DNA from: Lasiosphaeris hirsuta
Taxonomy: Eukaryota > Ascomycota > Sordariomycetes > Sordariales > Lasiosphaeriaceae
Direction: 5' to 3'
Length of the DNA stretch: 64,000 nt
Assembly (NCBI GenBank): GCA_030549175.1
Contig: JAUKUA010000002.1
Location: 3,286,001 to 3,350,000, forward strand
How positions within the stretch are numbered: the first letter of the stretch is position 1; every line of letters begins with the position of its first letter. The notes beneath the pieces were generated by a model, which was not told the origin of the DNA, searched no databases, and saw nothing but the letters and a program-made list of their open reading frames with translations. Shown here piece after piece: positions 30,667 through 57,577 of this stretch. The position numbers and the translations under genes were made by a program.

Positions 30667-32360
30667 TTACGGCGCGAGCCGAGTCGCATCACGAGGAAAG
30701 AGGACCGTTTCGCGTATATCATGCAAGCCCAAAATGCCCTGAACCAGCCGATTGATCCCCACTGCGATCAATGATTAGATTTCATGTGGTGGATGGGAGA
30801 AAGAAAAGACCTACTTCCAAAGCCACCCCAGGGAGGCATGCCAATCTCGTGAGCTACCATGTATGGCCGCCATTCGGCCGAGTCTGCATCGATGGGAGGG
30901 ACGCGTGCGGTAAAAGCCGATCGCAGTTCTTCGTAGGAATGAAGTAGCCGACACCCGGTGACGATCTCCTGTCCGCGCAGGATCACGTCAAAGGACTGGC
31001 TCGTGTTGTCACCATCCTCCGACGGGTAGATATTGCAGGGGCGCAAGTGTCTGGGAAAATGAGTCACGATGAAAACATCGGTAGGATGGCCAATGTACGA
31101 TTCGTTGCTCGATAGGAACCGACCCAGTGCTGCCTCTTCCTCTCTCCTGCCGCCCAGACGTTAGCAAACCCCCCCCCCCCCCATCCGCCCCCCTTTTCCT
31201 CCTTGACAGGCAGGATAGCAGAACGTACGTGAAGTCGTCGTCATCGTTGGATTGCCTGCCCAGGGAAGTGCGGAGGATCTCCTTGGCCTCCTTGAAGGTG
31301 AGGCGTACCAACTTCCCATGGTGGTCGAGCCCCAGCTTGAACTTACCGGCCAAAGGGTAGAGCCGCTGTGCGGTTCGTGTGAGCTCGAGGTACTTGTCAT
31401 ATTTCTGGAGCGATTGGATGAGAGAAACAATCAGGTCACTAGCCATGTCGAGAATCTCAGTCCAGTCTCGCTGGAGGCTGAAGACGAGTTCGAGCATGGT
31501 GAACTCCAGCCAAGTCAGCCGAAGCTAAAGGCTCGTGGGGGAGGGGAGTGGGCGTAACTAACCTCGGTCAAGTGTCTGCCATCAGAACCAGGCTCCCGGC
31601 GGAAGACGGTGTGGAAATCGTACACACGCCCCAAATCCGCCGACAGGGCCATACCCAGATGCACCTCGCCGGTAGGCGCCAGCCTGGCCGTCTTGCCAAA
31701 ATACGACACCGAAAACAAATCGTCTTCCTCGCCCGGAAATTCATAGGCGACCAAGGCAGGTGTGGGAACGTGGCAGAATCCATGCGCTGCCAAGTACTCG
31801 ACGGCCAGCTCGTGGACGCCCGAGGACAGCTTGAAAATGGCGGCAGTCGCCGTAACACGGGCGTCCAAGAGCCTATTGTCCAGCCGTTCGTGCAGCAGTT
31901 CGCCACCGACTGACCCGGCTGGCGGCGGCACCTCACCGGGAGCTCCGTGCAGTCTGGGATGCTTTGGAAGAACAGCCTTGGCGTGGGACCGGACTCTCAG
32001 CTCAGCGACTCGGAACGACGTGACCTCGGAGGCAGCGGTACCGCCGCTGTCCGACTGGTGGTTTTGGTTCGCCATGGTCGAGCCTGAAACGTAGACGAGA
32101 GATTCGGCCCTTAGATGCTGGGCCGAGCGGTAGCTAGAGGCATCTGTGGAGCTAGGCTCGAGAAAGGCCCTGATGAACTGACCATCGAGTCGCCGCAGCA
32201 GTACCATGACCGTCATGTCAGGCTCTATTGCAGGTTCACTGTGTACGCGGGCGTCGAACGAGTCGTAAACACCTCTCTGGGCGAGATCGGTCGTGGGAAT
32301 GCCGGTTCCCGCCAGACTTGGGACATTCGGCTGACCTTGATCCAAGTTCTCGGGAGCCAT
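30667..32360 (-). CDS. AspRS-like class II aminoacyl-tRNA synthetase paralog
   Basis: Four exons (31563-32360, 31229-31503, 30815-31146, 30667-30761) give 499 aa. Start is the first ATG (AAGATGG context). An OB-fold-like N-terminus (from about DLAQRGVYDSFDARVH) precedes a class IIb catalytic core: LDNRLLDAR, motif 2 VFRREPGSDGRHLTEFTMLE (FRRE 253-256; the intron falls inside it), and motif 3 PPWGGFGMGINRLVQGILGL, whose Arg473 is kept but whose usual acidic neighbour is Asn. It ends LFPRDATRLAP as cytosolic AspRSs do. The QSPQ motif that reads aspartate in AspRS is replaced by PTGE (229-232), so the amino-acid pocket has changed. It is unlikely to be the housekeeping enzyme. Options are a biosynthetic amino-acid activator, an aminoacyl-tRNA donor enzyme, or a self-resistance copy. 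Unlike ErdS it has no DUF2156 domain. It shares a promoter with the 2OG oxygenase. Confidence 0.85.
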
Positions 32361-32864
32361 CTTGGGAGAAAGTATTGGGGACGGCTGACAAAATACTCTG
32401 GAAGAGCAAGCTGTCGATAACACACGCTCTGGTCAAGTCTTGGGCCTCCTAGGCTACAGCGGTGCTTATAAATGGGTAAAAACAAAGTCGCCGACACATG
32501 CTAGCGAGATGTCGCTTGGAGTCAAGGCAAGGATTCCTTATGTGTGAGGGGGTGAGTAGGGGACGGGGGGGGCGGGGAGGGGGGCCGATGACAGCGGCTT
32601 TACACAGCTGCATATGCGTTAGGGGGTAAACTTACAACAAAGCCGATTACTTGAGAATCTGAGCTAATGGTACATATGAGGCTTACTAGCTGCGATGTAA
32701 GCATCCATCCATATGCCTAGAAAGAGAAAGGTATAATTACACGGCATCACTCACTCTCCTCACCGGTTGTCCCTCCTTCTCTCTGCAGACAAGTTGTTTC
32801 TCACCCCCTCTACCCCCCTTCAACCCCTTCCACTCTCCATATCTCTCACGTCATCTGCCTCAAT
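32361..32864. promoter_or_regulatory. Shared divergent promoter (AspRS-like / 2OG oxygenase)
   Basis: 504 bp between two divergent start codons, with G-rich tracts at about 32560-32585 and C/T-rich DNA (about 32770-32850) just upstream of the plus-strand ATG, a common fungal core-promoter feature. Co-regulation of the two genes is inferred. Confidence 0.55.
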
Positions 32865-33794
32865 ATGTCGTTGGGCGAGAAAGCCGAGGGCGCGCTGAAG
32901 CTGCAGGTGCTCAGCTACGAGCGCCTGAATGCTCGAGACAATGACGAGGTACAAAAGATGGTCCGCGCGCTCTCTGATGAAGGCCTATTCTTTCTCGACA
33001 TGAATGGTCCCAGCGCAGGACAATCCCTCCAAGACCTGTCGGCCATTCTTCGCCATCAGCGTGAATTCTTCGAAAGAGCGCCTGAAGTCAAGTCCAAGTA
33101 CAAGACCGACTTCCGGTTCAAAGGGTAAGCGGACTTTGGTGCTGACGTATCTGCTGAACGCCTAGGTAGATGCTAATTTCCGCTCGACATTACCAGGTTC
33201 ATTCCCACAGACATAGGGGTCGAGTTGCTCCGGGTCAGTAGGACGGACGATGACCCCTACCGCACACCCCGGAGATAGGGGGCCGCTAACTCGTCTCCTA
33301 CTCCACAGCTAAGTAGGGAGGAATGCATCCAGGGGATTCTCGACCTTCCGCACGATTTACGCCCTGTGTCGGCCAACGTGCTCAGCACATCCAGCTTTCT
33401 CGACGGGCTCCTTAGGGACCTCGCAGCAACCCTCTTCACGGCGATGGGCCTTCAACCACCAGCGCTAGATCCCGAGCAGCCCGGACTCAGCTACCTCACC
33501 CTGGGCATATCAAAGGCGCAGCGCGGGACGTGCCTGGTGGAGCCGCATGAGGACGAAGGTTTCCTGACTCTAACCTTCTACGATGAGCCCTTCCTCGAAG
33601 TTCTGGATCGAACCACTAAAGAGTGGAAGCTGCTGGAGGTCAATGAGCACATGCCCATTGTAAACGTGGCATTGGAGTCTCAGAGAAGGTCAAACGACCG
33701 GCTGTACGCACCACTTCACCGCGTGACACACGGAGAGAATGAGATCGATCTCATCATGTATGACTTGTACGAGTCCCCTAGTGGCGCAGTTTAG
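32865..33794 (+). CDS. IPNS-like 2-oxoglutarate/Fe(II) oxygenase
   Basis: Exons 32865-33124, 33197-33233 (37 nt) and 33309-33794 give 260 aa, all phases consistent. The N-terminal DIOX_N-like part contains EGLFFLDMNGP and the LxxxREFFERAPEVKSKY block. The double-stranded beta-helix has PHEDEGFLTLTFYDEP with His179-Glu-Asp181, and APLHRV with His236, so the 2-His-1-carboxylate iron site is complete. The Arg that normally holds 2-oxoglutarate (RxS) is not evident in the following IDLIMYDLY strand, so the co-substrate may be bound differently or not used. The family performs hydroxylation, desaturation, ring closure and halogenation in fungal metabolite pathways. At 260 aa it is shorter than most (about 330). 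It is divergent from the AspRS-like gene. Confidence 0.85.
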
Positions 33795-34089
33795 CTCGGC
33801 AGCAGAGATATTGGCTGCGGAAATTGTCGAGTAAAATGATGACTTTCACCGGCTACCTTGAGTGAGAGAAGAAATGAGATCTCCTGGCACGTATCCCGGC
33901 AATCAGGGAGGTAGTGATAGTTGAATGGGAATTTTTTACCATCAATAAACAAAAAACCAGCTGCAAAGCATTTATTTTTCCCCAAAAGAAAGATAGCGAA
34001 GATCGGAATGAGTTGATACAAAACAAGCAATTATTCCTATTTTCATTTTTATCCATCTTTGTGATGCCACCAATCGTAACAATAGCAGA

Positions 34090-36273
34090 TTACCCCAGGA
34101 GCCTGTCAAGCTCAGCCCGCCCGCGCTCATAGCCACCAGCAAACTCACGAAGCTTCAACTCATCGGCCTGCAGCTCGTCGACACACTCGTCCAAAACGAC
34201 GGCCTTTCGGTCGACCATCAGACGCAGCGCATCACGCTGCTCCCTCGCGAGCAGCGCCTCGTCTCCCGCCACCCACGCCTCGAGATCGAGGAAGGCGCGG
34301 GCCAGCCCCAGCAGAAACGCGACGTTCCTCATGGGCCGCTGCGCCCAGCTCAGCAGGGCATGGGCGAACCGCACGGCGTCGCCGAGGTCTTCGGCGTCGG
34401 GTGGTCCCAGGACGTCTCCCAGGCACGTGGGCTCGGGCAGTGCGTGCCGCCGCACCATCGCGAGGCCGAGGTCGACGATGTCGGGGCTGTACCGCGGGGG
34501 CCGTAGCTGCTCGTCCATGCACGCGATGCCGGTGCCCTCGGGCGCGAAGCCGTTCTCGGCGCGCAGCAGCCGCAGGCACTTGGAGAAGAGCGGCGTGATG
34601 GTCTGGTGCGGCGAGCTGACCGTGTTCTCGAGCAGGCACGGATGCGCGAACCACAGCGGTATCAGGATTCCGAGCCGCCCTGCTGTCGCCGCCCCGGGAG
34701 CCTGCGCCAAGATCATAGGCGGCCGCGGTGTGAAGTGGCGGAGGACGGGCTCGGTTGTGGGGGGCCATGGCGGCATCTCGGGTGGGAATGCGGGATGGGT
34801 GACGGCCGCGTCGCGCCGCGGCGGCGAAAAAATCTTCTCCACGGTCGCGAACCCGCCCACGAGGTTCCAGTATCTCTCCTCGGCCGGCGCGGCGCCGTCT
34901 TTGGGCCCGAGCGAGTCGATCCAAGTCCGCATCAGCTCCGTCTCGCGGTGCGTGAAGGCGCCAAACATGCGGCCCCTCCATGAGAGCTCGCGCATGAGGA
35001 GGCTCTTGCTGCTGTTGCCCCTGTAGACCCACGGCTTCGAGTTGGCTAGGGCGGTGAGGAAGGCGTCGTCGTCGTCGTCGTCCTCCTCCTCCTTCTTGCC
35101 TTGATCGTCCGACGAGAGCCAAGCCGACAAGCTCCGCCCGCCGATCCGAGCCCGGCTAGTGCAATGGATCTTGCTCGCGACGCCAGCCTTCCTGCGTAGG
35201 AGTCCGACCAGCTCGTCCTCATAGTCGTGGATCGTCTCCTTGTCATCAAGGCTCAGACCGAGGCAGTACCCGGCCTGGACGCGCTTCCATGCGCTGGCGG
35301 GGTCCATCAGACCCGTCTCCTGTACTACGCGCATGAAGCTGGCAATGTTCCCGACCGCCATGGCGCAGTGGCCCGAGTCGGCGTTGTCGATGGATATGTG
35401 CAGGACATAGTAGTAGGGCGAGACGCCAAACTCGGGCAGCTCCTTGTTCGCCTTGAGGACGCCGAGGTGCGGCTGCTCGTAGAAGAGGTTGAAGCCCAGG
35501 ATCTCGGGCAGGAAATCGTTGGGGAAGACGGAGACGAGCAGCTGCCCGATAGAGTACCGCCAGATGGACTCGTCCTCCAGGCCGTGGCGCGGGTGGATGA
35601 AGTCAGCGGCGTTTCCCGGCGGTAAGTCGACGCCGACGCTCCGCAGCAGATCTCTGTACAGCGCAACGTGGTTCTTGGCCAGGTCGCCGTCGCCCAGCTC
35701 TTCCGAGAGGATCTGCCACGCGTTCTTGGTCACGCCCCGGAGCGCAAACGGCGTGGTGATTTTATGGACCCGCGCCAGCCAGGCCCCGTCAGTGTAGTTC
35801 CACGGCGCGCTGTTCTTCAGAAACTGGCGCGCCCCTTCGAAGCTCGTGAACAGATCTTGGCCGGCTCCAGCCTCCCTCCGCCGGACGTACGACTCGAACT
35901 CGCGCCCAACATGGGCCTGCTTGTCCTCGATGAACTTGCGCAGCCGGTCGGCATCGAACTCGTTAATGTCCAGGATGCTGTGTGCGTGGGGCTTGTAGCG
36001 TGTCATCAGCAGGCCCTGCTCCAGCAGCGACAGCAGCAGGTGCCTGGCTTCGGGCAAAACGTCGGGAAAGAGCTCGAGGTTCTGCACCTTGTGGTACATG
36101 CTCTTGAAAGACTCCAGCCGCTCCTGCTTCTTAGTCTCTAGTCGTTTTGATTGGCGCTTTTCTGCGGGGCGTCCATTGTGGTGGCGCCCACATGTGCGGC
36201 TTCGGTAGAAGGAATAAACGGCGAGGGCTAGAGCGAGAGAAATGCCGAAAAGTAACATTCGTAAAGACGCCAT
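34090..36273 (-). CDS. Haem-oxygenase-like iron-dependent oxidase (HDO superfamily), membrane-anchored
   Basis: A single exon of 727 aa. The open frame extends 44 codons further upstream, but the ATG at 36273 (MASLRMLLFGISLALALAV) is chosen because it begins a signal anchor and has a good context. The central part has the features of iron-containing redox enzymes of Pfam Haem_oxygenas_2: EILGFNLFYEQPHLG, then SPYYYVLHISIDNADSGHCA (H-x4-D-x4-H spacing), then ETIHDYEDELVG. These proteins use a diiron centre to oxidise or cleave small amines and acids. A run of seven aspartates and a 250-aa C-terminal extension of unknown function follow. The N-terminal helix suggests an ER location. It is convergent with the 2OG oxygenase gene (295 bp apart), so the two oxidases may act in sequence (inference). 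Confidence 0.75.
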   Translation of the reverse strand: MASLRMLLFGISLALALAVYSFYRSRTCGRHHNGRPAEKRQSKRLETKKQERLESFKSMYHKVQNLELFPDVLPEARHLLLSLLEQGLLMTRYKPHAHSILDINEFDADRLRKFIEDKQAHVGREFESYVRRREAGAGQDLFTSFEGARQFLKNSAPWNYTDGAWLARVHKITTPFALRGVTKNAWQILSEELGDGDLAKNHVALYRDLLRSVGVDLPPGNAADFIHPRHGLEDESIWRYSIGQLLVSVFPNDFLPEILGFNLFYEQPHLGVLKANKELPEFGVSPYYYVLHISIDNADSGHCAMAVGNIASFMRVVQETGLMDPASAWKRVQAGYCLGLSLDDKETIHDYEDELVGLLRRKAGVASKIHCTSRARIGGRSLSAWLSSDDQGKKEEEDDDDDDAFLTALANSKPWVYRGNSSKSLLMRELSWRGRMFGAFTHRETELMRTWIDSLGPKDGAAPAEERYWNLVGGFATVEKIFSPPRRDAAVTHPAFPPEMPPWPPTTEPVLRHFTPRPPMILAQAPGAATAGRLGILIPLWFAHPCLLENTVSSPHQTITPLFSKCLRLLRAENGFAPEGTGIACMDEQLRPPRYSPDIVDLGLAMVRRHALPEPTCLGDVLGPPDAEDLGDAVRFAHALLSWAQRPMRNVAFLLGLARAFLDLEAWVAGDEALLAREQRDALRLMVDRKAVVLDECVDELQADELKLREFAGGYERGRAELDRLLG

Positions 36274-37120: not shown

Positions 37121-39280
37121 TCATGCGCACTGAAACTGTTCGGGCTGCTGTCGCATCAGCTCCCCCAGCTCCTCCATGAGGCGCGGAAGCTGCCGTGTGA
37201 TGGCCTCCTCATCCCCTGTAACCTGGCACTCGCAAGCCCAGCGGGCAGACTGCATGATGTGACCAACATTCAAACTGTCCCAAAAGGAGCCGCCCTCCAT
37301 GACACCGTTGGTCGGGGAGTGCACCGCGTACACTACCGGGAGACCGGGAGGGATGAGTAGAACGTCGTCTTGCTCGAGCACGAGAAACTCTAGCTTTCTG
37401 CGCGGAGGAGGGAGAGGAGAAAACCCATCCCTGTTTGCCCTGGCGAACGCCTCTAACTCGGGCGGGGTGAGGGCGTCGGCCGAGGCCAGGATGCAAAACT
37501 TGACACCGTCGAGGTTACGCATCCATACACCACTCGCCGCGGCGAGGTGCGGCCCGGAGAATGCGCCCGCGAGACTCAGGGTGTTGAAACTGGTGCGACT
37601 GGCCAGCTCGGACTGCCGCGGATGGCCGAGTCTCTCAACAAGACTGTCGAGCAGCCGGAAGCGCGGTAGCATAATGACGCGAGGTCGGTGGGAGCGTATG
37701 ATATTTCTCAGGTGGAAGGTGACGGCGTTCGCCCCCGCGGCTGTCTCCTCCGGCGAGACGGCCACTCTGCATAGGCTGCGCAGAAGCGCATCGATGCGAT
37801 CCGGCGCCAGGGGGTCACGCTCAAGCGAGTCTATGCTGACAACGGCATTGATCGATGCGCCTTGCAGCAGATCCGCGGCGGCACGCACGGTGTGCATCCC
37901 CGAGTCCGAGAATGTCTCCTTGATGACGAGCGGCTGCCGAAAGATGTTGCCATCCTGTGCTGCTCGCACGGCTTCTTCCGACGTCACGTAGTGAACGCTG
38001 GCGCCTTGATGCCTTCTACCTGGTAAGATCCACTCGGCGGGGGAGCCGAGCCATTGTGCGCGCAGCTGTCGCCGATCTTCGGGACAAGATGGTTGTTGCT
38101 CTGCTTCTGTCAAGACCTTCCGGACGTAGGCGGCGATCATGTCGGGATACCCATCGTGCAGCGCGTCCAGTGGTGCCGAAGGACGCCCTTGGCGGCTCTG
38201 GGCCGCTACCAAGACAGCCTCCTCTTCTCGGTCTGGCAGGTCAAAGACAGGAACGGGAGGAGCAAATACAGGCTCGGCTACCAAGGCGCTATTTCGCGGC
38301 GCGTCGGGGGGGCCTGGCAGCTGTAACCCTTCCAGCACGGCTAGGAACTCGGCGTCGGGAATTGGCACTGGAAATGGCAGGGACGCGAGGTTGGCGGGGT
38401 TATAGTCTGAGTGGCCAGGGCCGCCAACTTCAACATGGTCACGCGACAAGGCCGAGGGGAGGGCGGACGGAGCACTGCGTACGTGGCCGCCCCTGGCAGC
38501 GAGAAGACCGTAGCAGTCTCTCCGCAAGAGGTAGATTGGGTAGTGGTCGGGGCGGAGATCCCTGAGCAGCGTTGCTGCCACATCATCGACGGGGACACGG
38601 CCGTCCTGGCTCGCAACCCATTGGTTCTCCAGGTCCTCATCGGGGACGGCAGAGACGAGGGCGGCGATATCCAGGTCTCTGTGCGGCTGCAGGGGGGCCT
38701 CGTTCAGCGTTTTGGCCCTGCGGTGCTGGATCGCGTGGCGGTGTCTTTGCAGCAGGACCGCATTGAGGCGTGGGCGGAAATCACGGTCAAAGTGCGGGTA
38801 GCGGGTCGCGCATGCCCTCAGAAGATTCATGTGGACCTGGCTGGCGCTGTTCCACCCGTAGTGGAACACGAGATCGGGCGACCACAGTGCTGCAACCAGG
38901 GCCAGGTTGCGGAGTCGGTTGGTCTCGTTGTATGCCCGCTTGCGCTTCCTGCTGCTGCTGCTGCTGCCGCCGCCGCCGCCGCCATCCTCCTCCTCGCCCC
39001 CCGACTGGCTGGACTGACTGACTAGACGGGATAGTGCGAACAAGTCTTCCCATCTGGAGTCAGCATCCCGACGGAGACGGACAATCTTGGCCACGGCGCT
39101 GAGCGTGCAGATGCGTGTGTCCAGACGTTCGCGCTGGCCAAGCAGGTAGTCCCGCATGGCGGCAAATGTGGAAGCCGGCGCGCCGCAGGACCAAGCTTCA
39201 AAGAGTCGCTGGATCCACGCGTGCGTTTCCTGATCGAACGAGAGGCTTATGTCGGCCCCACCTGATGCTACACCACCCAT
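37121..39280 (-). CDS. Cupin/JmjC-like protein with an HxA...H metal motif
   Basis: A single exon of 719 aa from ATG 39280 (an upstream GTG extends the frame by seven codons). Residues 1-330 are helical and low in complexity in places (Gly/Ser-rich and basic run, RKRKR). The C-terminal 250 residues resemble fungal JmjC-like cupins: SFNTLSLAGAFSGPHLAAAS, VWMRNLDGVKFCIL, LVLEQDDVLLIPPGLPVVYA and VHSPTNGVMEGGSFWD. In catalytic JmjC proteins the first strand carries H-x-D/E and the last a His. Here it is His578-Leu-Ala580 with His654, so the carboxylate ligand is lost. Iron halogenases such as SyrB2 use exactly an HxA/G change to make room for halide, while many dead JmjC proteins also lose ligands. 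Which applies here is unknown. It lies tandem to the HDO gene. Confidence 0.7.
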   Translation of the reverse strand: MGGVASGGADISLSFDQETHAWIQRLFEAWSCGAPASTFAAMRDYLLGQRERLDTRICTLSAVAKIVRLRRDADSRWEDLFALSRLVSQSSQSGGEEEDGGGGGGSSSSSRKRKRAYNETNRLRNLALVAALWSPDLVFHYGWNSASQVHMNLLRACATRYPHFDRDFRPRLNAVLLQRHRHAIQHRRAKTLNEAPLQPHRDLDIAALVSAVPDEDLENQWVASQDGRVPVDDVAATLLRDLRPDHYPIYLLRRDCYGLLAARGGHVRSAPSALPSALSRDHVEVGGPGHSDYNPANLASLPFPVPIPDAEFLAVLEGLQLPGPPDAPRNSALVAEPVFAPPVPVFDLPDREEEAVLVAAQSRQGRPSAPLDALHDGYPDMIAAYVRKVLTEAEQQPSCPEDRRQLRAQWLGSPAEWILPGRRHQGASVHYVTSEEAVRAAQDGNIFRQPLVIKETFSDSGMHTVRAAADLLQGASINAVVSIDSLERDPLAPDRIDALLRSLCRVAVSPEETAAGANAVTFHLRNIIRSHRPRVIMLPRFRLLDSLVERLGHPRQSELASRTSFNTLSLAGAFSGPHLAAASGVWMRNLDGVKFCILASADALTPPELEAFARANRDGFSPLPPPRRKLEFLVLEQDDVLLIPPGLPVVYAVHSPTNGVMEGGSFWDSLNVGHIMQSARWACECQVTGDEEAITRQLPRLMEELGELMRQQPEQFQCA

Positions 39281-40307: not shown

Positions 40308-41309
40308 TCACTTGGGCACCCCAAGGAGCTTCAGTGATTCCATGAGCCCCAGTCGCAGCCAGCCATCCATCTCCCCCTTGGTTGCCACGGCAATGACCCC
40401 CAGCATTCCCAGCGCGTTTGCTCCTGCCTCTTTGTTGATGGCTGCCCGCTGCCTCGGTAGCACAACGATCCAACGACGGGTGAGAATCATGTTATGCGGG
40501 CACGCAGCCTCTGGCGGAGCCTCGGCCGCATTTTCAGAGCGACCCTGGCCGACCCGTGTGGCTTGTTCTAGAAGGCTGGTATAGACCCGGGTTACCTCAA
40601 TCGGCGTGACAGGCCCGCGGCTGGATGGGAAGCGGCGATAGAACCAGTGAAACGCGACGTCGGGCTCTTCGCCGGCTTCGCTGTCGAGAAAGGAAGCAAA
40701 ACTGTCATTCGGCATTGGCATCAGCTGGATGTGTTTGTGCATCCGGCTGCACCCCCCGTCGCGGCCGCAGTTGAAAAAGGCGACATAGTTGTCCTCCCCC
40801 AGGGCGGCCAATGCCGACCAGGCTGCTTCGATGTCGCTCTCCAGCAGGGATTTGTACTGCTTCTGGTATCCATCGCGTGTCAGAAGCATAAGATGGGGCC
40901 TGGCGAAGCAGAACTTATTAGCTGCTAGAAAGTGTGTGCCGCTGCCGATGTCAGTCTGCATCTCGAACCCCGCAGTGTCGATGTCACTCCCAGCTTGTTT
41001 TTCGGCCTGGTCACCGTCAGGTCCCTGTCGTTGGGGCACATGTAGAGTCGGCTTCTTGGAGAGGGCCGAGGTGAGGATAAACCGAAACTGTCCAGAAGGA
41101 GGGTGGTTTAGCAGGTGTGCGGCGTCAAGGCACGGCCGGCTTAGGTCCCAATGAAAACCTACTTTGATCCCGCCCTCCAGATGCTCGATTACCTCTTGTT
41201 TGTCGTCATACAGCACGAGCCCGGTCTCGACAAGTTTGTCAAATTGCCGCAGGACACGTAACTCTTCCATGTTGGAGGAAGGATTGCTGATTTTGGAGCT
41301 GCTTTCCAT
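40308..41309 (-). CDS. Apa1/Apa2-like Ap4A phosphorylase / nucleotidyltransferase
   Basis: An intronless 333-aa protein. The HIT-superfamily active site is intact: NCGRDGGCSRMHKHIQLMP with His191-Lys-His193-Ile-Gln195 (H-x-H-x-Q). The C-terminal ATP_transf domain has CPHNMILTRRWIVVLPRQRA and NALGMLGVIAVA. Length matches yeast Apa1/Apa2 (about 320-325 aa), which cleave Ap4A with phosphate or run in reverse to join ADP and ATP, through a nucleotidyl-histidine. A copy placed in a metabolic cluster may transfer a nucleotide to or from a pathway phosphate, or recycle the pyrophosphate or adenylate made by the AspRS-like and ATP-grasp enzymes (inference). It is divergent from the dehydratase gene, with which it shares an 864-bp promoter. 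Confidence 0.85.
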   Translation of the reverse strand: MESSSKISNPSSNMEELRVLRQFDKLVETGLVLYDDKQEVIEHLEGGIKVGFHWDLSRPCLDAAHLLNHPPSGQFRFILTSALSKKPTLHVPQRQGPDGDQAEKQAGSDIDTAGFEMQTDIGSGTHFLAANKFCFARPHLMLLTRDGYQKQYKSLLESDIEAAWSALAALGEDNYVAFFNCGRDGGCSRMHKHIQLMPMPNDSFASFLDSEAGEEPDVAFHWFYRRFPSSRGPVTPIEVTRVYTSLLEQATRVGQGRSENAAEAPPEAACPHNMILTRRWIVVLPRQRAAINKEAGANALGMLGVIAVATKGEMDGWLRLGLMESLKLLGVPK

Positions 41310-42173: not shown

Positions 42174-43737
<1,564 letters not shown>

Positions 43738-46656: not shown

Positions 46657-48271
46657 ATGTCGCCTCAAAACCACAACTGGTCCGAGATTACGGATATTAA
46701 TGAACGACGGAAAGCTCAAAACCGTAAAGCGCAGAAGAATTACCGTGAGTTGTCACCACCCTTCCCATCGCCAAGCCGGCAAAGCGGATCTCGGGCGAGG
46801 GGGTAGCTAGGAAGCAAACACAACGCCTCAACACTGTGGTAACCCATCTCTCTAGGGACAAGGCAAAAGCTTCGCACCCAGCTCGTGGAGGCCGTGTTAC
46901 TCGATATGCCCCGCTTCTGCACGGCGGCTGCATTGACCGGGCGCCGACAGAAACAAAGCTGGCCCGCCCTGGGGGGGATCGAAGGCTGGTCCGATCGTCT
47001 GCCCACGACGGCCCTCTTGGATGGCGTCGCGGAGGGCAGTGAGGCGGTAAGGGGCGCGCTACCAATTTCGCCCCGCATGGCAGTTATGGGTAGCCATGAC
47101 GCAGACAAAAACAAGGCGTGCCAAGCCTTGTCTACGGCCACTGCGGCGACGACTGCGGCGGCGGCGACGACGATGACGACGACGACGACGACGACGACTA
47201 CAACATCGGCGGCAACGCCACAGAGCCATGCAGAGGGAAACGGGATGGGAGTCGACTTCGATGTTGGGCCCGATCTTGGCCTGCCCGCAGGGTCTCCGGC
47301 GACGGAGGGGGGGTACCATATGGACACGGCCATGGGCGAGACAGACTGGATGAATATGCAGAGCCACTCGCCAGTGCTGATGTCACAACTGCTACCTAGG
47401 CCGCCGACGCAGGCGAGGTTGACCGAACTTGCAGAAGCCGTGGCGGCGGCAGCTGTGGCAGACGACGATAGCAGCACACCATCACCCTGGCGAAACAACC
47501 CTGCCGCTGTACGCTCCCCCTGTGCCCTTTGCCTAGCCCCAACGCTGATGGCTGTGCACAGATAGACGATGTCTTCCAGGGTTCATCGCCTCCGGCACAC
47601 CAACAATTCCCACCATGGTCCCACTCGATGGTATCACCGGCTGCGTCGCTCGCGGGGGACCCCTTTGCGCCAGCCGTGCCGAGCTCGGCTATCAGCAACA
47701 CCACCGACGCCACGGCAGACCTCGGCCGCTACGCCGTGTCGCTATCCGAGACGGTGACGCCGAGCAGCGCCAGCACCGCGCTAAACTTTGAGCCCATGAA
47801 CCCGCTCCTGACAGCCATCTCGATGGGCGACCTCCACATCGCAGACCTGCTTCTCCGCTCGGGCGCCGACATTGACAAGCGCGATGCGCACGGCAGGACC
47901 GCGCTGCATCTTGCTGTCGAGCGCGGCGACGTCGGCATGGCCAGGACCCTGCTCGACATGGGCGCCGACGTCATGACGGGCGATGCCCAGGGGCGGAGGC
48001 TGCTGCACACGGCTGTCGAGAACGACAACGCCGAGATGGTGAGGCTGGTACTTTGCTGGTGTAAGGGAAAGCAGGCGGGCGGGAGTGGCGCAAACGCGTT
48101 CCTGAAGTCGACCGAGCGGGGCCCAGGGGGGGGGAGGGTTTGACCATGCGCTGCATCGACGCGCGGGACGGGAGGAAGATGACCCCTGTTCACCTGTGCG
48201 TGCTCTTGAAAAGGATTGAGATACTACAGATTTTGCTCGACCATGGGGCCGATGTCAACATTGGCTGTTAG
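46657..48271 (+). CDS. bZIP-ankyrin (bANK, ToxE-type) transcription factor
   Basis: Exons 46657-46744, 46856-47508, 47562-48060 and about 48117-48271 give about 464 aa. The basic region ERRKAQNRKAQKNYRTRQKL spans the first junction (Arg split by a GTGAGT...TAG intron) and is not followed by a clear leucine zipper. A long low-complexity middle has an (ACG)n-encoded Thr run. The C-terminus has ankyrin repeats: NPLLTAISMGDLHIADLLLR, RTALHLAVERGDVGMARTLL, RRLLHTAVENDNAEMVRLVL, and KMTPVHLCVLLKRIEILQIL. The last short intron (donor GTAAGG at 48061) is needed to keep the frame; its acceptor is 48116 or 48107. This architecture is that of ToxE and Aps2, regulators confined to the HC-toxin and apicidin clusters. 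It is the strongest sign that the flanking genes form a regulated cluster. Confidence 0.8.
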
Positions 48272-48478
48272 GCGGTTAGCCCCCTTTTATTCTATCGAGT
48301 GCAATACCACATATCTACAACCCCAATTCTATGCCATTTCAGCCCAACCGAGCCCAGTGCTTCTGACACAGGTATCCTCTCAATATAGCCCCTGTACACG
48401 GATGTACTATCACCCAAGCACATAAAGAAAAAAGAAAAGTATTAGACTTTTTATCCTTGTTATGCGCCTGCGAGGGGT

Positions 48479-48578: not shown

Positions 48579-48697
48579 GGAGTTGCAGGTCACGGTGCGC
48601 AGTAGTCCTTTTTTTTATCTTGCTTTATTTTCATGACTTCATCTTGTCCTACTTGAGGTAGGAACATAAGGTGAGCTCAGGCAGAAGTTTGGCGCTC

Positions 48698-50813
48698 TCA
48701 CGCGCTATTATCCAGAACATTTATCGAAACCCTCAGAACGCGGTCACACATCTCGACCACATGCATTCTGCTCTTCCTGGAGAACAGGATAAAAAATGCA
48801 ACGAAGCCAGAGCCAGCTCTCGGCGACACCGTACTGCCAGGCTCTGCAAAAAACTCGGCCCTTACCAAGTACGACACGATCTCGGGCAGCTCTGCGAATA
48901 CCCGTTCGAAGAAGTCGGGGGGCACGTACATGTTCTCGCGGTGCATGGGCACCTGGCGGTTCCCGCACCAGAACTGGTGGGCGGGCTCGGAAAAGGGCTG
49001 GGAGAGAGCCTTGTATCGCTCGCGATCGCCCAGAGCGCAGAGAAACTGGAGGGCTCCCATGTCGACGCCGTAGGTGTGCAGCGTCGCCCACGTGGCGTCG
49101 AAGCCCGGCGGCCGGGCGTTGACTTCGACCAGGAAAACACCCGGCGGGCCTTTTTTCGGCCCACCCTCGGCTTCGCCGTGGACAAGATCTTGGATGCCAT
49201 TGATCTCCCCGTAGCGCATTGAAGAATTCTGGACCCGGGCCTCGACATGGAAGACACCGGACCGGAAGCCCAGCTGGAGGAGATTCTCGTGCAAGACGGA
49301 CTGGAGCAGCTCCACCTCGCCGGGGTCCAACGCTGTCGGATGCACCATGAGCGTCTCGCTGAAGTCGTCGGCAATCGTGGCGTCGGCCGCGTCGGCAGAG
49401 CAGGGGAAGTCGTCAGATATCTCGCAAAAGAGCAGCTCGCCATCCCAGAGAACCAGGTTCGCGTCCACCTCGGGGCCATCGACGTACGTCTCGATCAGAA
49501 TGCCGTGCTTGGTGAGCCCTTCGTCGTCCATTTTTCGTACGGCCTGGCGCAGAGCCGAGAGGTCGCCGACCTTCCTCACTCCGCGTGAAGCAGCGGCCCG
49601 GCACGGCTTGACGATTAAGGGGTACTCTAACTCCGCTAACCTCTCCGCCGTGGGCGGGTCATCGAGATGCTCGGCGTCGTCCAGCCGCACGACCTGGACC
49701 CTTGGATTTCGGACCACCCTACGTGTCGCGTCCTTGTAGTGTGCCCGGACGATCAATGCCGCGGGCTCGGTGGGCAGACCCAGCATCTCTGCCGCTCTAG
49801 CCGTGGCAATGACCAGCTCATCGGAGAATGTGACGATCCCATCGAGCTGCCTGCCTTTGAGCGCCTCAGCAATGTGTGACGGCAGCCTCGCGTCGCCCGC
49901 CGCCATGTCAATGGCGACAAAGTCGTCGCGGAGATGAGCATACGTCTCGCCCTCGAGCCAGTGCCCCGACGCATCGAGAACAATGACGGAGATCCCGAGG
50001 GCCTGGGCGGCCTCGAGTAGCCCCTTCGCGCCGTATTGTTCCCTCGCCATGTCGTACAGACGGCGTCCCCCGAGCATGGCTACGGTACGCGGCAGCGGTT
50101 GCGTTGGGAGCACCCAATCAAACGACAGTCGGTGTTCTAACTCGCTAGCCAGCAGCTCCAGCCTTTCTCCGGGTGGAGCCTGGGACGACTCCTTTCCCAA
50201 CAGCGCCCCTGGCGATGATGACAGCAGCACAGGGAGAGTCGCCCTCCCGCCTTCGGCCGGGATGGCTGGGAAGCCACCGTCAGGGGTCGCGAACCCTACA
50301 ACCGAGGCAGCGTGTTCAGAATGCCGCATCCTAAGTTCAAGAATGTCTTGCCTGCACAGAAACCCACCGCGAGGGACGAGAACCACCTTGGCCACCATGG
50401 CGATAGCTTTGGCACCGGCCGTTCCACGAGCGATGCAAGCACCAACGAGAGTCCCAAGGGCACTACTAGTAGCATGGGGCGCGATAACGTCTGCTTCACT
50501 GCCATCTCCGGGCTCATGTTCCCGCTCGACCCATGGTGTGCAATCAATGTCCAGAAGGAGGTCGAGAGAGTGGAAATTAATAACAGTGCGTGGCGCATCG
50601 CGCACCGCGGGTGGCTCAGAGAATCTCCAACGACAAGAGACCTTGACCGGATCTAGGTATCGTCAACCCGGGTAGGGAGGGGATTGGACCTGGGAGGTTC
50701 TGCGAGAGCAATAAAGACGTACCTTTTCTGTCATTCACGTCGACGAAGAAGACTTTGGAGATGAACTCGGCATTTTGGATGCCACCCGATGTGTTTGCAC
50801 CCTCGGGCTTCAT
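48698..50813 (-). CDS. ATP-grasp carboxylate-amine ligase
   Basis: Exon 1 50723-50813 and exon 2 48698-50652 (70-bp intron, GTACGT...CCTAG with a GTTGAC branch) give 681 aa. The N-terminal 200 residues are a fungal extension (FFVDVNDRK..., WRFSEPPAV). The pre-ATP-grasp part has GISVIVLDASGHWLEG and GIVTFSDELVIATARAAEML. The ATP-grasp fold has YPLIVKPCRAAASRGV, ILIETYVDGPEVDANLVLWD, and the metal/phosphate block FLVEVNARPPG. The C-terminus ends with the SGFVAFFILFSRKSR-type subdomain seen in carnosine-synthase-like ligases. Such enzymes form an acyl phosphate and join it to an amine, making peptide-like bonds without an NRPS. Here it is the best candidate for the bond-forming step of the cluster product. 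It is convergent with the regulator gene and upstream of the NMNAT-like gene on the same strand. Confidence 0.85.
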
Positions 50814-51279: not shown

Positions 51280-52110
51280 TTACGGCAGCATCGGCGCCAG
51301 GAAACCGAGAAGAGTTTCGGTGCTGAGCTGGTTGAGTCTCCCCTCATCAAGGCCCTGGCTCCGGACAAACATTTCCCGCAGATTGGTCGAACTGATGTCA
51401 GCGTATGCAGGCCCGGCAGACTGTAGGTAGTACCCCCTTGCCCCGTCGGCACCGACGCACGTCCAAAGCACAGTATCCGAGTCTTCTGCCTGGCCCTTGT
51501 CATTGGCGCAGCGGGACCACTCCCCAAAACCCTTCCACACCGTCGGGCTGCCGTCAGAGGAGAAACCGGTGGCGACGTGCCTGCCCCTGTTGGAGACCAA
51601 GATGCGCGGCAACCGATACGGGAGGATGTCGAGCGGGTCGTCGGGGTTGACATTGTCGGGTCCGATCAGGTGCGAAAATGCCAGCTCGAATCCGTCGGCT
51701 TTGGTCAAGCGAACCAGGGCGTCAGTGAAGGTCTTGAAGGGGTACCAGGTGCTCGCCCACACCCACACCCGGTCCCGCGAGTGGGCGGGTACGATGGCGG
51801 CCCAGATCTCGGCCCGGCGTTCCATGCGCAGGAAGAACTCGGGGTGGCTCTTGGCCACCTTGTGCCGCAGGTGGAAGTCCTCGCTCGGCAAGACAACGAT
51901 GCCGAGCGCCCCGACCGAGGGTGCCAGCCCTGACAGGAGCACGTCTATGTGTCCTCTGTGGGGCGGATTGAACGAGCCCCCGTACACCAAGATGAGATTC
52001 TCGCGTCCGCGCTGTAGCGTCCCGGTGACATGCTGAAACGCGGCCAGGTCGGCAGCAGAAGTCAAGCGGGATTCCTTATAGGCCAACTGTAAATAATGCT
52101 GCAGAGACAT
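51280..52110 (-). CDS. NMNAT/cytidylyltransferase-like nucleotidylyltransferase
   Basis: An intronless 276-aa protein. It has the two hallmark motifs of the nucleotidylyltransferase alpha/beta-phosphodiesterase fold: GGSFNPPHRGH at residues 44-54 and ISSTNLRE at 239-246, with LIGPDNVNP between them. Known members join AMP or CMP to a phosphorylated substrate with loss of pyrophosphate (NMN adenylyltransferase, phosphocholine cytidylyltransferase). In bacterial phosphonate pathways a related domain (FrbH) makes CMP-phosphonates. Immediately downstream on the same strand order lies a CDP-alcohol phosphotransferase, so a pair that makes and then uses a CDP- or CMP-activated headgroup is plausible (inference). 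An NAD-synthesis paralog is the main alternative. Confidence 0.85.
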   Translation of the reverse strand: MSLQHYLQLAYKESRLTSAADLAAFQHVTGTLQRGRENLILVYGGSFNPPHRGHIDVLLSGLAPSVGALGIVVLPSEDFHLRHKVAKSHPEFFLRMERRAEIWAAIVPAHSRDRVWVWASTWYPFKTFTDALVRLTKADGFELAFSHLIGPDNVNPDDPLDILPYRLPRILVSNRGRHVATGFSSDGSPTVWKGFGEWSRCANDKGQAEDSDTVLWTCVGADGARGYYLQSAGPAYADISSTNLREMFVRSQGLDEGRLNQLSTETLLGFLAPMLP

Positions 52111-52656: not shown

Positions 52657-53643
52657 TCAAATTGGCATTGTCACGGACCAGCAAACAGCGAATATAGCCG
52701 CGGTTGCAGCAGGAATCGTAATGCCACCGTCTAGTTTCAGCTTCAGCCTACCACTTATCATCATGGATCCGAGAGCCAACACGAAACCCGACGCTGGATG
52801 GAATTCCCACCATCGCCCACGGTAAAGGACAAGGCCGGGGACAAGCCCGCTCAATGTCCACCCCATCCACGCAGAGACAGCGACAGCCGTGCCTATCAGC
52901 AAGCCTGCATAGGGGGTCGGAAGCCCCTGATGGTACAGTGGCTTGCCGTTTTCATCCTTTGGCACCAGGTGCGCCGCGATGTTGAACCTTGCCAGTCGAG
53001 CGATGCCGCAGAGCACGAAGAAGCTGAGGGCCGCCTGGTCGATGGCGGTGCGAAGCCCAAGAGAGTATAGCATGAAGGCCGGAGCCGTGACAAATGTGAT
53101 CTGTGAAGCTGTGAGTACGGTGTTCCAGACCCTGTCGTAGTGAGGCGAGGGGAGCGGTACTAGGTCCGAGAGGCTGTCAAGCTCTTTGCCCATTTCAGAG
53201 CATTCGTTCCTCCACCTTGCAACCTTGCCATCGAAGCGGTCGAATTCGTAACCGACAAATATAAGCGCGTAGGCCAGTAGAAACCGACTTTCCACAGATG
53301 AGTATATGGAAAACACTACACGCTATCAGTGTCCAAAGTCTGAACGCCAATAATGCGGTGCCCCTCGTGGTGCATATTACCTCCGCAGAGACCTTTGACT
53401 CCTCTCGTTAGAAGCCGCGCTCATACAGGGGGAGAGCAGATCATAAGCCCCACGGTGTCCCATGGTGGGCCCTGTTCACGTACCATTGGAGAGCGTCAAA
53501 TAATCCGCGACCCGGAGATTCCTAACACAGAACGTGCTTTAGGTTGGAGTGATAGGTCTAGGGTGGGTTCATCTATTGGAGTACCTGAGAATTCCGAACT
53601 TCTCTTCTTTTGCGGTGGCCGGGGCCACTTTTGATGGAGGCAT
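52657..53643 (-). CDS. Phosphatidylserine-synthase-like CDP-alcohol phosphotransferase
   Basis: Five exons: 53585-53643, 53484-53521, 53381-53392 (a 12-nt microexon), 53161-53315 and 52657-53100, giving 235 aa. The microexon restores SNGLCGVFSIYSS. The 60-bp intron at 53101-53160 has no stop and would otherwise add 20 residues after SLSDL. The CDP-alcohol signature is complete: DRFDGKVAR, then G79, D83 and D87 in D-x2-DG-x2-AR-x8-G-x3-D-x3-D spacing (residues 62-87). ALSFFVLCGIARLARFN and LVPKDENGKPLYHQGLPTP match fungal Cho1. Cho1 joins serine to CDP-diacylglycerol in the ER. This copy lacks the usual N-terminal extension and differs in the C-terminus, so it is probably a specialised paralog rather than the housekeeping enzyme (inference). 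Confidence 0.8.
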
Positions 53644-54280: not shown

Positions 54281-56384
54281 ATGGGCAACCAACCACCGCA
54301 GCACGTAGTTCACAGTCCCATCGAGGATGAAGAGACTACCCAAGTCAACCTCGACAGATTACGACCCGTGGTCGACACATTACCGCTTGTTGTTTGGGTT
54401 GCTCTTGCGGTCAGCGGAGCAGAGAGGTTTACCTTTTACGCCGTCACTACACCCTGGCGTAAGTATCAAGACAAGATCTATCTACATCTCTGCTGGCTGC
54501 AGTAGGCTGGGAGCTAAGCACAAGTTGTCTCACGCAGAGAACTATATGCAAAATAACCACGATAGCATCGCCGTCCCGGGAGCTCTCGGTCTCGGTCAAG
54601 CCACTGCCACCAACATATCCAGCGCCTTTTACTTTCTTACATTCCTAGCTCCTGTGCCATTTGCCATTATCTCGGACGCGTGGCTTGGCCGTTACAAGAC
54701 GCTATGTCTCAGCATTGTGTAAGCTTCTCCCCCATCCAGCCAGGCAAGCAGACTAATGCATGTTGCTGTCGACAGACTCGACTTTTGCGGGTGCTTGGTA
54801 CTCTTCATCACATCGCTCTCGTTTGTAAAGAGTGAAGTGACGAAGATTGCCGGTTTAGCAGTTGGGATGGTCCTCTTGGGTCTCGGCACCGGCGGTGTCA
54901 AAGCCACCGCGTCTCCCTTTATAGGTGTGTGCCTTCCGCAGGCCGTAGCCACAGTACATATGAAGCATTTCAAGTGATGCTGGACTAATTGCTTGTTCAA
55001 ATAGGGGACCAATACTCAATTGCAGCCCCACGGCTTGTGGTGACGAAGGCTGGCGGGCGAGCCGTGGTTGACCGCGCTTTGACTCTGCAGTATATATACA
55101 ATGTTTTCTACTGGTGAGAAGCACCCACACGGAGCAGAGTAGAGGGAGAAAGGGATGATTTTAAACTAATGTGATGCGCAGGTTTACCAATATTGCCAGC
55201 TTGTCTCTAATAGCTTCGACGTATTTGGAAAAAAATGTCGGCTTTTGGGCAGCCTACCTGATGCCGGTGTGTTCGATATCAGTCTTGCTAGCTTTTCTTT
55301 TGTTCTGGAACAAGTCGTTCGGTAAGTGGTATTTCCAGGGGGGGCGGGAAACTCGCACCGTCAGGGCTGACAGTCTGCCGATACAGTCAAACTCGCACCA
55401 CAAGGAAACGTTCTTCCCAAAGCCGGAAAGGTCGTCCAGCACGCGGTCCGGGGCCGATTCCGACTCGACGCTGCCAGGCCGGCGCACCAAGCCGAGAAAT
55501 GGGGCCGAGTGGTCAATTGGGACGACGAGTTCGTCTCAGAGATAGGGAGAGGGCTCAAGGCTTGCGTAGTCATGTTCGTCCACTTTGCTCCACGACCTTT
55601 TTTTCTCTCTGCAGAGCTTATGTATGCTCTTTGCTGCCACAGGGCAAACTGACCTTATGGACCTAGGGCCTGTTTCGTACCTTTTCATTTGTGCATGAAC
55701 CAAATAGCCAACAATCTGGTCTCGCAGGCAGGCCAGATGCAGCTGGGCGGGGTCCCAAACGACATGATCCAGGCTCTCAACTCCATCGCATGCATCCTGC
55801 TGGGCCCGCTGATGCAAAACGTGCTGTACCCGTCGCTGCGCCGGGTCGGCATCGCCTTTGGGCCGATCGCTCGGATGACGTGGGCTTTTGTTGCCATGAG
55901 CACGGCCATGGCGTATGCCGCCGGGGTGCAGAAGCTGATCTACTCGAGGGGGCCGTGTTACGACCACCCCTTGGCCTGCCCGGACGCGGCCGGCGGCAGC
56001 GTCCCCAACGAGATCAACGTCTGGGTGCAGACGCCCCTGTACTTCCTGCTGGCCGTCGCCGAGATTCTGGGCTTCACGACGCTGTCCGAGTACAGCTATT
56101 CCGAGGCGCCCAAGAACATGCGCAGCCTGGTGCAAGCGCTGGGCCAACTCAGCTCGGGCGTGGGGTCCGGGCTTGGCATGGCCGTATCGCCGGTTTCTGT
56201 TGATCCTCAGATCCTGTGGCTGTACACGGGACTGGCCGTCTCCATGGTGGTCGTGGCGCCCACGTTCTGGTTGGCGTTTAGTAGATACGACAAAGCTGCT
56301 GACCAGCTAGCAGCCAACTCCTCGGACCAAACCGAATGCAGCAGTACCCAGATAGACAGAGTCGAGAACACCAAGACTGATTAG
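54281..56384 (+). CDS. POT/PTR-family proton-coupled transporter
   Basis: Seven exons (54281-54458, 54538-54718, 54776-54924, 55005-55113, 55182-55321, 55387-55573, 55667-56384) give 553 aa; every phase fits and most introns have CTAAT or CTGAC branch sites. The donor of intron 6 is GTTCGT. Family blocks: SGAERFTFYAVTTPWQNYMQ, ALGLGQATATNISSAFYFLT, DAWLGRYKTLCLSIV, VLLGLGTGGVKATASPFIGD, YNVFYWFTNIASL and MNQIANNLVSQAGQM. About twelve hydrophobic segments are present. PTR2-type carriers move di- and tripeptides; within clusters they often export peptide-like products. It shares a promoter with the phosphotransferase and is convergent with the NmrA gene, placing it at the right side of the cluster. 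Confidence 0.88.
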
Positions 56385-56556
56385 TTCTAAAAGAATTAAA
56401 AAAAATAAAAAATAAAAATAAAAATTCAATACGGCGTCATAGGTACGAGTCGGATTTTACAGAGCACATCATCTTGAAGCTCTGGAAGCAGAGCCAAAGT
56501 CCACATCTATAAGTAGCTACCTTCCAAGTAGCATGACCAAGCCAAAGTCCTAGAGC

Positions 56557-57577
56557 CTAGGAGCTCCGCGACTTGACATAATCCTTGAGAACATTGCGCA
56601 CATCACGCGAGTTCAACCCCAGTGCCTTGTTCGCCAACTGGTCGTCAGGGATTGCGTACGGGGCCCCGTCGACAAAGGTAATGGACTGCAGTATGTCCAA
56701 GAACGAGGCATGGTACTCGCCCCTCGAGATCTTCTCGAGCCCAATCCGCGCCAAGTCGGACGTCTTCTCATGCGAGATGGTGAACTTGGCGCCCGACTCC
56801 TCCTCGAGGATGGCAATGATTTGGTTCTGCGTGACGTTGAACTCGGCAACCTCAATGTACTTGTTGGCCGTTTTCTCTTCGTGCAGCAGGACGGCTACGG
56901 TCGCCTCGCCGATAAAGGCGAGGGTGCAAGTCGAGGCCGGCTGGTTGCCCGAGTCGAAGACTCTAGCCGTCTTGTTCTTGAAGTCGATGCCAAAGACGCC
57001 CATGTCGAGACCCTGGTCTCATGTCAGTCTTTGTCTTGTAAAAGTGGGAAGGATTGGGAATGAACGTTTTACCCAGTCGAAAAAGGGGCCGGTCGAGATA
57101 CCAGTCCAGGTGAGCTCGGGATGTGTCTCGGCCTGCTCGATGAGATAGTCGACGCCCTTGGTCTTGGCGGAGAGCAGAGACGCGGCGGGGCCGTGCAGCT
57201 TGCCCGGGCGGGTGCTGTGGCCGAACTCGGAGGGAATGTAGCGCTTCACACCGGCGGCGATGGCGGCGTCGGCAAAGATGTTTTGCTTGCCGATAGACGC
57301 GCTGGCGATGGTCGAGATGACGGCATCTTGGCCGGCGAAGGACTTGGTCAAGGACTCAATCGACTCGAGGTCCGTCTTGCGCACCTCAACACCGTCGGGG
57401 AAGGTCGAGGTTGACGACTCGCGCGTAATGGCGGCCACCTTAAAGCCGGCCTCGAGAAGGGCGGCGACGATGGGGGCGCCAATGTTGCCCGAGGCCTTTA
57501 TTTATGTTAGTTGTGAGGCCTTGGGAAGGTTGTGGGATTTGACTCACGCCGATGACTGCAACTGTCTTGATGGCCAT
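56557..57577 (-). CDS. NmrA/isoflavone-reductase-like NAD(P)H reductase
   Basis: Exons 57548-57577, 57073-57495 and 56557-57012 give 302 aa. The first exon is 10 codons and ends inside the Rossmann motif VAVIG|ASGNIG, restored by a 52-bp intron with a CTAAC branch. Further features are DAVISTIASASIGKQNIFAD, AGVKRYIPSEFGHSTRP, KTKGVDYLIEQAETHPELTW and STGPFFDWGLDMGVFGIDFK. These match isoflavone-reductase/PCBER-type proteins common in fungal metabolite clusters, where they reduce C=C or imine bonds. The active-site Lys of PCBER would be the one in SAKTKGVDY. It is convergent with POT (173 bp apart) and is taken as the last cluster gene, although membership is not certain. Confidence 0.85.

What the first reader, a model, noticed from the sequence alone, without database searches (positions are those of the whole stretch)
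30667..57577. A 27-kb gene cluster without a classical backbone enzyme
Directly seen: about twelve adjacent genes for an AspRS-like synthetase, a 2OG oxygenase, an HDO-type oxidase, a JmjC-like cupin, an Apa-like nucleotidyltransferase, a GMD-like SDR, a bANK regulator, an ATP-grasp ligase, an NMNAT-like enzyme, a PSS-like phosphotransferase, a POT carrier and an NmrA reductase. Established: bANK regulators of the ToxE/Aps2 type sit in metabolite clusters, and ATP-grasp ligases build peptide bonds without an NRPS. Inference: the cluster makes a small amino-acid-derived, nucleotide-activated (possibly phospholipid- or phosphonate-like) compound. Tools that require a PKS, NRPS or terpene core would miss it.
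Basis: partly seen in the sequence, partly recalled or inferred. Interest (0 to 1): 0.88.

Follow-up and report, generated by a model that had tools for sequence, protein, structure and literature searches.

The report
Fungal gene cluster with repurposed tRNA-synthetase
A stretch of a fungus's genome holds a dozen neighbouring genes, including reworked extra copies of everyday enzymes, that probably make an unknown small molecule, and parts of the set recur together in other fungi.

Summary
The twelve genes are there, at 30667-57577 of a Lasiosphaeris hirsuta contig. Of 8 searched in the whole genome, AspRS-, PSS-, Ap4A-phosphorylase- and ATP-grasp-like genes have relatives elsewhere; NMNAT-like, GMD, HDO and JmjC-like are sole copies. 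The stretch looks composite. (A) AspRS-like and JmjC-like genes lie on contigs of identical length in 13 of 32 JmjC rows (9 of 11 named fungi, own included); in Aspergillus fumigatus one gene model joins 2OG-type and AspRS-like. (B) PSS-like and NMNAT-like are joined in one Aspergillus melleus model, in the window's order; none of 16 leading PSS-like rows shares a contig length with A (weak negative). In 17 aligned AspRS-like relatives the adenylation residues are kept and both aspartate side-chain contacts are leucine (K306L, R485L), so it is probably a re-specialised adenylate-forming enzyme, neither a translation enzyme nor a resistant target copy. The JmjC-like protein has the KDM2/KDM7 fold but lost iron ligands. 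TIGR02320 PEP mutase was not found, so phosphonate chemistry is unsupported. Best reading: an NRPS-independent specialised-metabolite locus; product, co-expression and unity of A and B are untested.

The parts
30667..32360 (-). AspRS-like class II adenylate-forming enzyme, 4 exons (31563-32360, 31229-31503, about 30815-31148, about 30667-30761); the deposited L. hirsuta model P0033 ends earlier
   Evidence: pocket residues
32865..33794 (+). 2OG-type oxygenase-like protein; HED...H triad read by eye, 2OG-binding arginine not seen
34090..36099 (-). HDO-type (PF14518) protein, single exon, 669 aa, sole copy
37121..39280 (-). JmjC-fold protein without a full set of iron ligands (P0001, B0H67DRAFT_479864), sole copy
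40308..41270 (-). Ap4A phosphorylase (Apa2)-like nucleotidyltransferase; two relatives elsewhere in the genome; HxHxQ by eye
42174..43737 (+). GDP-mannose 4,6-dehydratase-like SDR, sole close copy (my model misses one exon stretch)
46657..48271 (+). bANK-type regulator: basic region near 46702, ankyrin repeats 47562-48140 and a further ankyrin-like stretch to about 48271; exon borders not resolved
48698..50398 (-). ATP-grasp ligase; two relatives elsewhere in the genome; C-terminal exon border uncertain
51280..52110 (-). NMNAT-like nucleotidyltransferase (HxGH by eye), sole copy
52657..53643 (-). PSS-like CDP-alcohol phosphotransferase of a clade apart from CHO1; N-terminal exons placed by eye
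54327..56384 (+). POT/PTR2 transporter
56557..57577 (-). NmrA-like reductase

Best explanation
This is a composite, NRPS-independent specialised-metabolite locus. Shown: twelve genes, extra family members of four primary-metabolism enzymes, two gene pairs that recur in other fungi, a re-tooled AspRS pocket. Inferred: the AspRS-like enzyme activates a neutral or modified amino or carboxylic acid (not aspartate) as an acyl-adenylate and passes it to an amine, hydroxyl or carrier rather than to tRNA; the ATP-grasp ligase makes a second amide bond; HDO and the 2OG-type protein oxidise the amino-acid part; the Apa-like enzyme may salvage Ap4A, a by-product of class II synthetases (recalled); the NMNAT-like enzyme joins a nucleotide to a phosphorylated intermediate and the PSS-like enzyme moves the phosphoryl group onto a serine-like alcohol; GMD may feed a 6-deoxy sugar; bANK regulates, POT exports. 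The JmjC-fold protein is a structural or regulatory partner, not an oxidase.
For: Own-genome relatives: AspRS-like, on C1 (plain AspRS type) and C11 (ErdS type), plus weaker synthetase matches; PSS 41-63% at C7:2.446 Mb; Apa C12 43% and C10 32%; ATP-grasp C8 38% and C1 43%. Linkage: 13 of 32 JmjC rows on a contig of the same length as an AspRS-like row, 9 of 11 named, own included; locus tags QC764_503100/503120 and PFICI_10848/10845. P0079 joins 2OG and AspRS-like; P0160 joins PSS-like and NMNAT-like. Pocket, 17 aligned relatives of the 76 rows: K306L, R485L, D342E, Q303E 17 of 17; R325, E327, D471, E478, R531 kept 17 of 17; the C1 and C11 relatives keep K306 and R485. Trees (27 AspRS-like, 23 JmjC-like rows) put Periconia, a dothideomycete, near Pestalotiopsis: 97/94, and in a six-row group at 82/90.
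Against: No product, no expression data. No shared promoter motif beyond chance. None of 16 leading PSS-like rows shares a contig length with module A, and Trichoderma chlorosporum has AspRS-like and PSS-like on contigs of different length. 63 of 76 AspRS-like rows are not on a JmjC contig, and the Xanthoria and Acrodontium JmjC rows are not on an AspRS contig. Linkage elsewhere of HDO, Apa, GMD, ATP-grasp, bANK, POT and NmrA was not tested. NMNAT, GMD, HDO and JmjC are sole copies, so a primary role for them is not excluded. Contig-length identity is indirect; I saw no DNA of the other fungi.
Confidence: 0.52

Rival explanations
1. Two unrelated neighbouring loci: module A (AspRS-like, 2OG-type, HDO, JmjC-like) and module B (ATP-grasp, NMNAT-like, PSS-like, bANK, POT), each with its own product, side by side in this genome.
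For: Each pair recurs on its own; 16 leading PSS-like rows (50-61% where the clade is named: Colletotrichum tofieldiae, Hypoxylon, Aspergillus, Fusarium, Trichoderma and others) share no contig length with module A. About 2.9 kb without a predicted gene lie at 43738-46650.
Against: The negative is weak: L. hirsuta's own PSS-like protein is not in the listing either (best 120 of 347 shown), so models of this small split gene are missed. Nothing else tested separates the modules.
Confidence: 0.27
2. Self-resistance cluster: AspRS-like and/or PSS-like are insensitive copies of the targets of the cluster's own inhibitor (may hold together with the best explanation).
For: Duplicated essential genes in clusters often are resistant targets (FunARTS paper, passages seen; duplicated aaRS, review passages). 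The PSS-like clade keeps the CDP-alcohol motif and the RLARFN stretch in 9 aligned rows, with one-letter changes in some.
Against: A working target copy should still bind aspartate; both side-chain contacts are leucine in 17 of 17 aligned relatives, and Pfam's anticodon OB domain is listed for 0 of 76 family rows (many of them fragments) against 38 of the 44 remoter rows listed. For PSS-like it is not excluded.
Confidence: 0.1
3. Not a metabolite cluster: module A is a regulatory or RNA/protein-modification system (aaRS-derived enzyme plus pseudo-JmjC protein) and the rest is chance neighbourhood.
For: JmjC fold of the KDM2/KDM7 type with a KRKR stretch; AspRS-like with JmjC-like is the strongest link found.
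Against: Oxygenase-type genes, transporter, bANK-type regulator and ATP-grasp in the same stretch.
Confidence: 0.15

Closest known systems
E-64 clusters (cp1/cp2) of Aspergillus flavus (PMC12568646; start of abstract, passages and section 6 seen)
   Same: NRPS-independent fungal cluster built on a 2OG oxygenase and a stand-alone ATP-grasp ligase
   Different: E-64 clusters use an ANL-family amide synthetase and an ATP-grasp enzyme with no detectable Pfam domain; here an AspRS-derived enzyme and an ATP-grasp of PF18130/PF13535, plus nucleotidyl and phosphotransfer genes
ErdS, ergosteryl-aspartate synthase (review PMC9437257, passages seen)
   Same: Fungal AspRS-derived enzyme outside translation
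   Different: ErdS is AspRS fused to a DUF2156-type transferase; this genome has such a protein separately on C11, with K306 and R485 kept; the window protein shows only PF00152
Asparagine synthetase A (same review, passages)
   Same: Class II core used for a tRNA-free ligation
   Different: NCBIfam AS-A models score at most 52.3 bits against cut-offs of 309 or more; aspartate contacts lost
bANK-regulated clusters of HC-toxin, apicidin, apicidin F (PMC4109984, passages seen)
   Same: Regulator with basic region plus ankyrin repeats inside the cluster
   Different: Those clusters have an NRPS; none found here
PhpF/FrbH NMNAT-like cytidylyltransferases of bacterial phosphonate pathways (recalled, no call)
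   Same: NMNAT-fold enzyme putting a nucleotide on a phosphorus intermediate
   Different: No TIGR02320 PEP mutase match in the genome at E 0.001

Membership tests
Canonical AspRS | K306 and R485 (yeast numbering) contact the aspartate side chain (roles recalled) | tested here: not met
   L and L in 17 of 17 aligned relatives; the window model reads the same stretches
Canonical AspRS | ATP/Mg residues R325, E327, D471, E478, R531 (roles recalled) | tested here: met
   17 of 17
ErdS | AspRS fused to a DUF2156/PF09924 transferase | tested here: not met
   only PF00152; PF09924 found in the C11 relative instead
Asparagine synthetase A | NCBIfam AS-A model above cut-off | tested here: not met
   52.3 of 309
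JmjC oxygenase | JmjC fold | tested here: met
JmjC oxygenase | HxD...H iron ligands | tested here: not met
   window protein reads H, A, Y; intact in 4 of 31 readable rows of 32, own included
HDO (PF14518) | domain above Pfam cut-off | tested here: met
   99.2 of 28.9
2OG-Fe(II) oxygenase | HxD...H triad, 2OG-binding arginine, Pfam above cut-off | tested here: inconclusive
   triad read by eye, arginine not seen, both Pfam domains below cut-off
Phosphatidylserine synthase (pssA equivalog) | TIGR00473 above cut-off | tested here: inconclusive
   90.1 of 107, but with a model that still carried an intron; clade apart from CHO1 types 100/100
CDP-alcohol phosphotransferase | DGxxAR(x8)GxxxDxxxD motif | tested here: met
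GDP-mannose 4,6-dehydratase | TIGR01472 above cut-off | tested here: inconclusive
   334.9 of 415 with an incomplete model; PF16363 320 bits
bANK regulator | basic region plus four ankyrin repeats, no zipper | tested here: inconclusive
   ankyrin above cut-off; basic region by eye only, no Pfam hit to it; zipper and repeat number not tested
Phosphonate cluster | PEP mutase | tested here: not met
   TIGR02320: 0 matches in own genome (the control rang in 6 of 14 genomes, over cut-off in 0). The broader PF13714 gives 5 matches, so a divergent mutase is not fully excluded
E-64-type cluster | ANL-type amide synthetase beside 2OG and ATP-grasp | tested here: not met
   no AMP-binding domain listed for the 12 genes

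The most novel reading that the evidence does not exclude
Filamentous fungi carry a third AspRS lineage besides cytosolic AspRS and ErdS: an enzyme that kept adenylation but changed its amino-acid pocket and shed tRNA recognition, and that serves as the tRNA-free ligase of a mobile biosynthetic module with a JmjC-fold pseudo-enzyme as frequent partner, here beside a nucleotidyl/phosphotransfer pair, making an unknown phosphoryl-linked amino-acid product.
Probability: 0.35. Interest if true: 0.78.

Novelty: new variant of a known kind. Interest (0 to 1): 0.6.

Why it matters
Cluster finders that need a PKS, NRPS or terpene core would miss it. It points to a family of 76 database rows of AspRS-derived proteins (17 aligned here share the altered pocket) ready for a simple ATP-PPi exchange test, and to a recurring PSS-like/NMNAT-like pair whose chemistry is unknown. 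It also gives a case of an oxygenase fold whose metal site decayed while the gene stayed beside its partner.

Tried and rejected
Phosphonate product: no TIGR02320 PEP mutase; the broader PF13714 matches at 4 places, which shows the search works in this genome but leaves a divergent mutase open. Resistant AspRS copy: pocket lost. Common regulation by a shared motif: ToxE box 43 matches against 47.6 expected at one mismatch; Apf2 box TGACGTGA 3 in the window, all inside the cluster and two of them in presumed promoters, but 22 of 100 shuffles reach 3; no k-mer of 7-10 bases was in more of the 9 presumed promoters than the best k-mer of 60 shuffles. Viral contigs: AspRS profile gave two remote loci (28%), JmjC none. 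Close bacterial relatives of the NMNAT-like protein: none. Solved structures: no match for HDO, only weak ones for NMNAT-like. Rfam: nothing. Literature, open-licence PMC only: searches held no paper with all terms; others gave context, and no title listed there names such a cluster. First gene-finder versions were replaced, except that the lower NmrA border comes. The AspRS-like fold model had mean pLDDT 68.6 and was not used further. The odds of best and rival readings are not exclusive.
Full report
What the window is. The JmjC-like protein at 37121-39280 matches P0001 of Lasiosphaeris hirsuta, whose contig has 6,674,962 bases, exactly the length of contig C7 that holds the window. The genome has 44.4 Mb in 14 contigs. 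So the window is from L. hirsuta; that this is a sordariomycete is recalled.

The observation. I wrote a splice-aware gene finder, trained on the window and nine 10-kb stretches of the same genome. It merged the bANK, ATP-grasp and POT stretches wrongly at first; strand-wise reruns separated them. Pfam confirmed class II synthetase, PF14518, Ap4A phosphorylase, GMD, ATP-grasp, CDP-alcohol transferase and POT, and ankyrin repeats and NmrA. The bANK basic region was read by eye. The 2OG-type, NMNAT-like and JmjC-like proteins fall below Pfam cut-offs or have no match and rest on homologues, motifs or fold.

Are they housekeeping genes? I searched the whole genome with 8 of the 12 proteins. With relatives elsewhere: AspRS-like (C11 and C1; weaker matches to other synthetases on C10 and C7), PSS-like (C7:2.446 Mb), Apa-like (C12, C10), ATP-grasp (C8, C1). 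Sole: NMNAT-like, GMD (one weak 33% match on C10), HDO, JmjC-like. 2OG-type, bANK, POT and NmrA were not searched. The C11 AspRS relative carries PF09924 after the synthetase, the make-up of ErdS, so the plain cytosolic AspRS is probably the C1 copy.

Linkage elsewhere. The protein search reports the contig length of each hit. Of 32 JmjC-like rows 13 lie on a contig whose length equals that of an AspRS-like row (76 family rows): L. hirsuta itself, Lasiosphaeria hispida, Podospora australis, P. pseudoanserina, Apiosordaria, Pestalotiopsis, Astrocystis, Coniella, Periconia and four unnamed contigs. Among named genomes this is 9 of 11, own included; Xanthoria and Acrodontium are the misses. Locus tags put the two genes close: QC764_503100 and 503120 (tags appear to run in tens), PFICI_10848 and 10845; this leaves room for the one or two genes (HDO, 2OG-type) that lie between them here. 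The reverse is less tight: 63 of 76 AspRS-like rows, among them the Trichoderma species, are on contigs without a JmjC row, though one search scored only the best 7998 candidates and many rows are fragments. In A. fumigatus (P0079, a cluster of 73 sequences) one gene model joins a 2OG-type domain to an AspRS-like domain, and both parts match the neighbouring genes of the window. This form keeps R485 but not K306.

A second pair. The PSS-like protein belongs to a clade apart from the CHO1 type (100/100, stem 1.47 changes per site; 16 rows), with members in Colletotrichum tofieldiae, Hypoxylon, Aspergillus, Fusarium, Trichoderma chlorosporum and others. The A. melleus row P0160 is a joined model whose second half is 56% identical to the window's NMNAT-like protein over 150 positions, in the window's order. 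So PSS-like and NMNAT-like are neighbours there too. None of the 16 leading PSS-like rows shares a contig length with the AspRS-like or JmjC-like rows, and T. chlorosporum has AspRS-like and PSS-like on contigs of different length. The negative is weak because L. hirsuta's own PSS-like protein was not in the listing either (best 120 of 347 rows shown).

The AspRS-like pocket. Profile alignment to yeast AspRS (1EOV) places K306, R485, D342 and Q303 on L, L, E and E in 17 of 17 aligned relatives (17 of the 76 rows, plus P0079 apart); R325, E327, D471, E478 and R531 are kept in 17 of 17. The window model reads the same stretches. L. hirsuta's C1 and C11 relatives keep K306 and R485. The roles of these residues are recalled from the yeast structures. 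Pfam's OB-fold anticodon domain is listed for 0 of the 76 family rows and for 38 of the 44 remoter rows shown (counted by eye), although the profile alignment runs into that region. I infer an adenylate-forming enzyme with a new, less polar substrate and weakened tRNA recognition.

History. The AspRS-like tree (27 of 76 rows) joins Periconia (Dothideomycetes) with Pestalotiopsis at 97/94; the JmjC-like tree (23 of 32 rows) has both in a six-row group at 82/90. Both pair Apiosordaria with P. pseudoanserina (100/100). This fits joint transfer of the pair, though several deeper branches are open.

How it may work. Shown: gene content, copy numbers of 8 genes, two recurring pairs, altered pocket, lost JmjC ligands. 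Inferred: activation by the AspRS-like enzyme, amide formation by ATP-grasp, oxidation by HDO and the 2OG-type protein, nucleotide activation and phosphoryl transfer by the NMNAT-like/PSS-like pair, export by POT, control by bANK. Ap4A removal by the Apa-like enzyme is a guess from the side reaction of class II synthetases (recalled). A phosphonate is not supported. No common promoter motif was found.

Against known systems. E-64 clusters (PMC12568646; start of abstract, passages and section 6 seen) are the nearest NRPS-free fungal plan I found but have other ligases. bANK clusters (PMC4109984, passages) share the regulator only. aaRS-derived ligases and resistance copies are reviewed in PMC9437257 (passages); a fungal module with a re-tooled AspRS was not in the passages I saw, and searches listed none in open-licence PMC.

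Verdict. The finding is real and interesting; its unity and chemistry are open. I put 0.52 on one composite metabolite locus and 0.27 on two neighbouring loci.

Noticed in passing
L016 (C11 about 2.30 Mb): AspRS fused to a PF09924 domain, the make-up of fungal ergosteryl-aspartate synthase (ErdS)
   Followed up: yes
window 27529-28437 and 29340-30551: A second NmrA-like reductase and an alpha/beta hydrolase just left of the cluster; they could belong to it
   Followed up: partly
window 19303-21807 and 59484-61274: Dynamin-type GTPase and DUF1996 gene flank the region
   Followed up: no
P0079, Aspergillus fumigatus: 2OG-type and AspRS-like in one gene model, 73 member sequences; keeps R485 but not K306, perhaps an intermediate form
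   Followed up: partly
P0005, P0024, P0025, P0027: JmjC relatives with intact HxD...H, one of them from Xanthoria
   Followed up: partly
window 47147-47198 and 46589-46620: Trinucleotide repeats (CGA, GAA) in and just before the bANK gene
   Followed up: no
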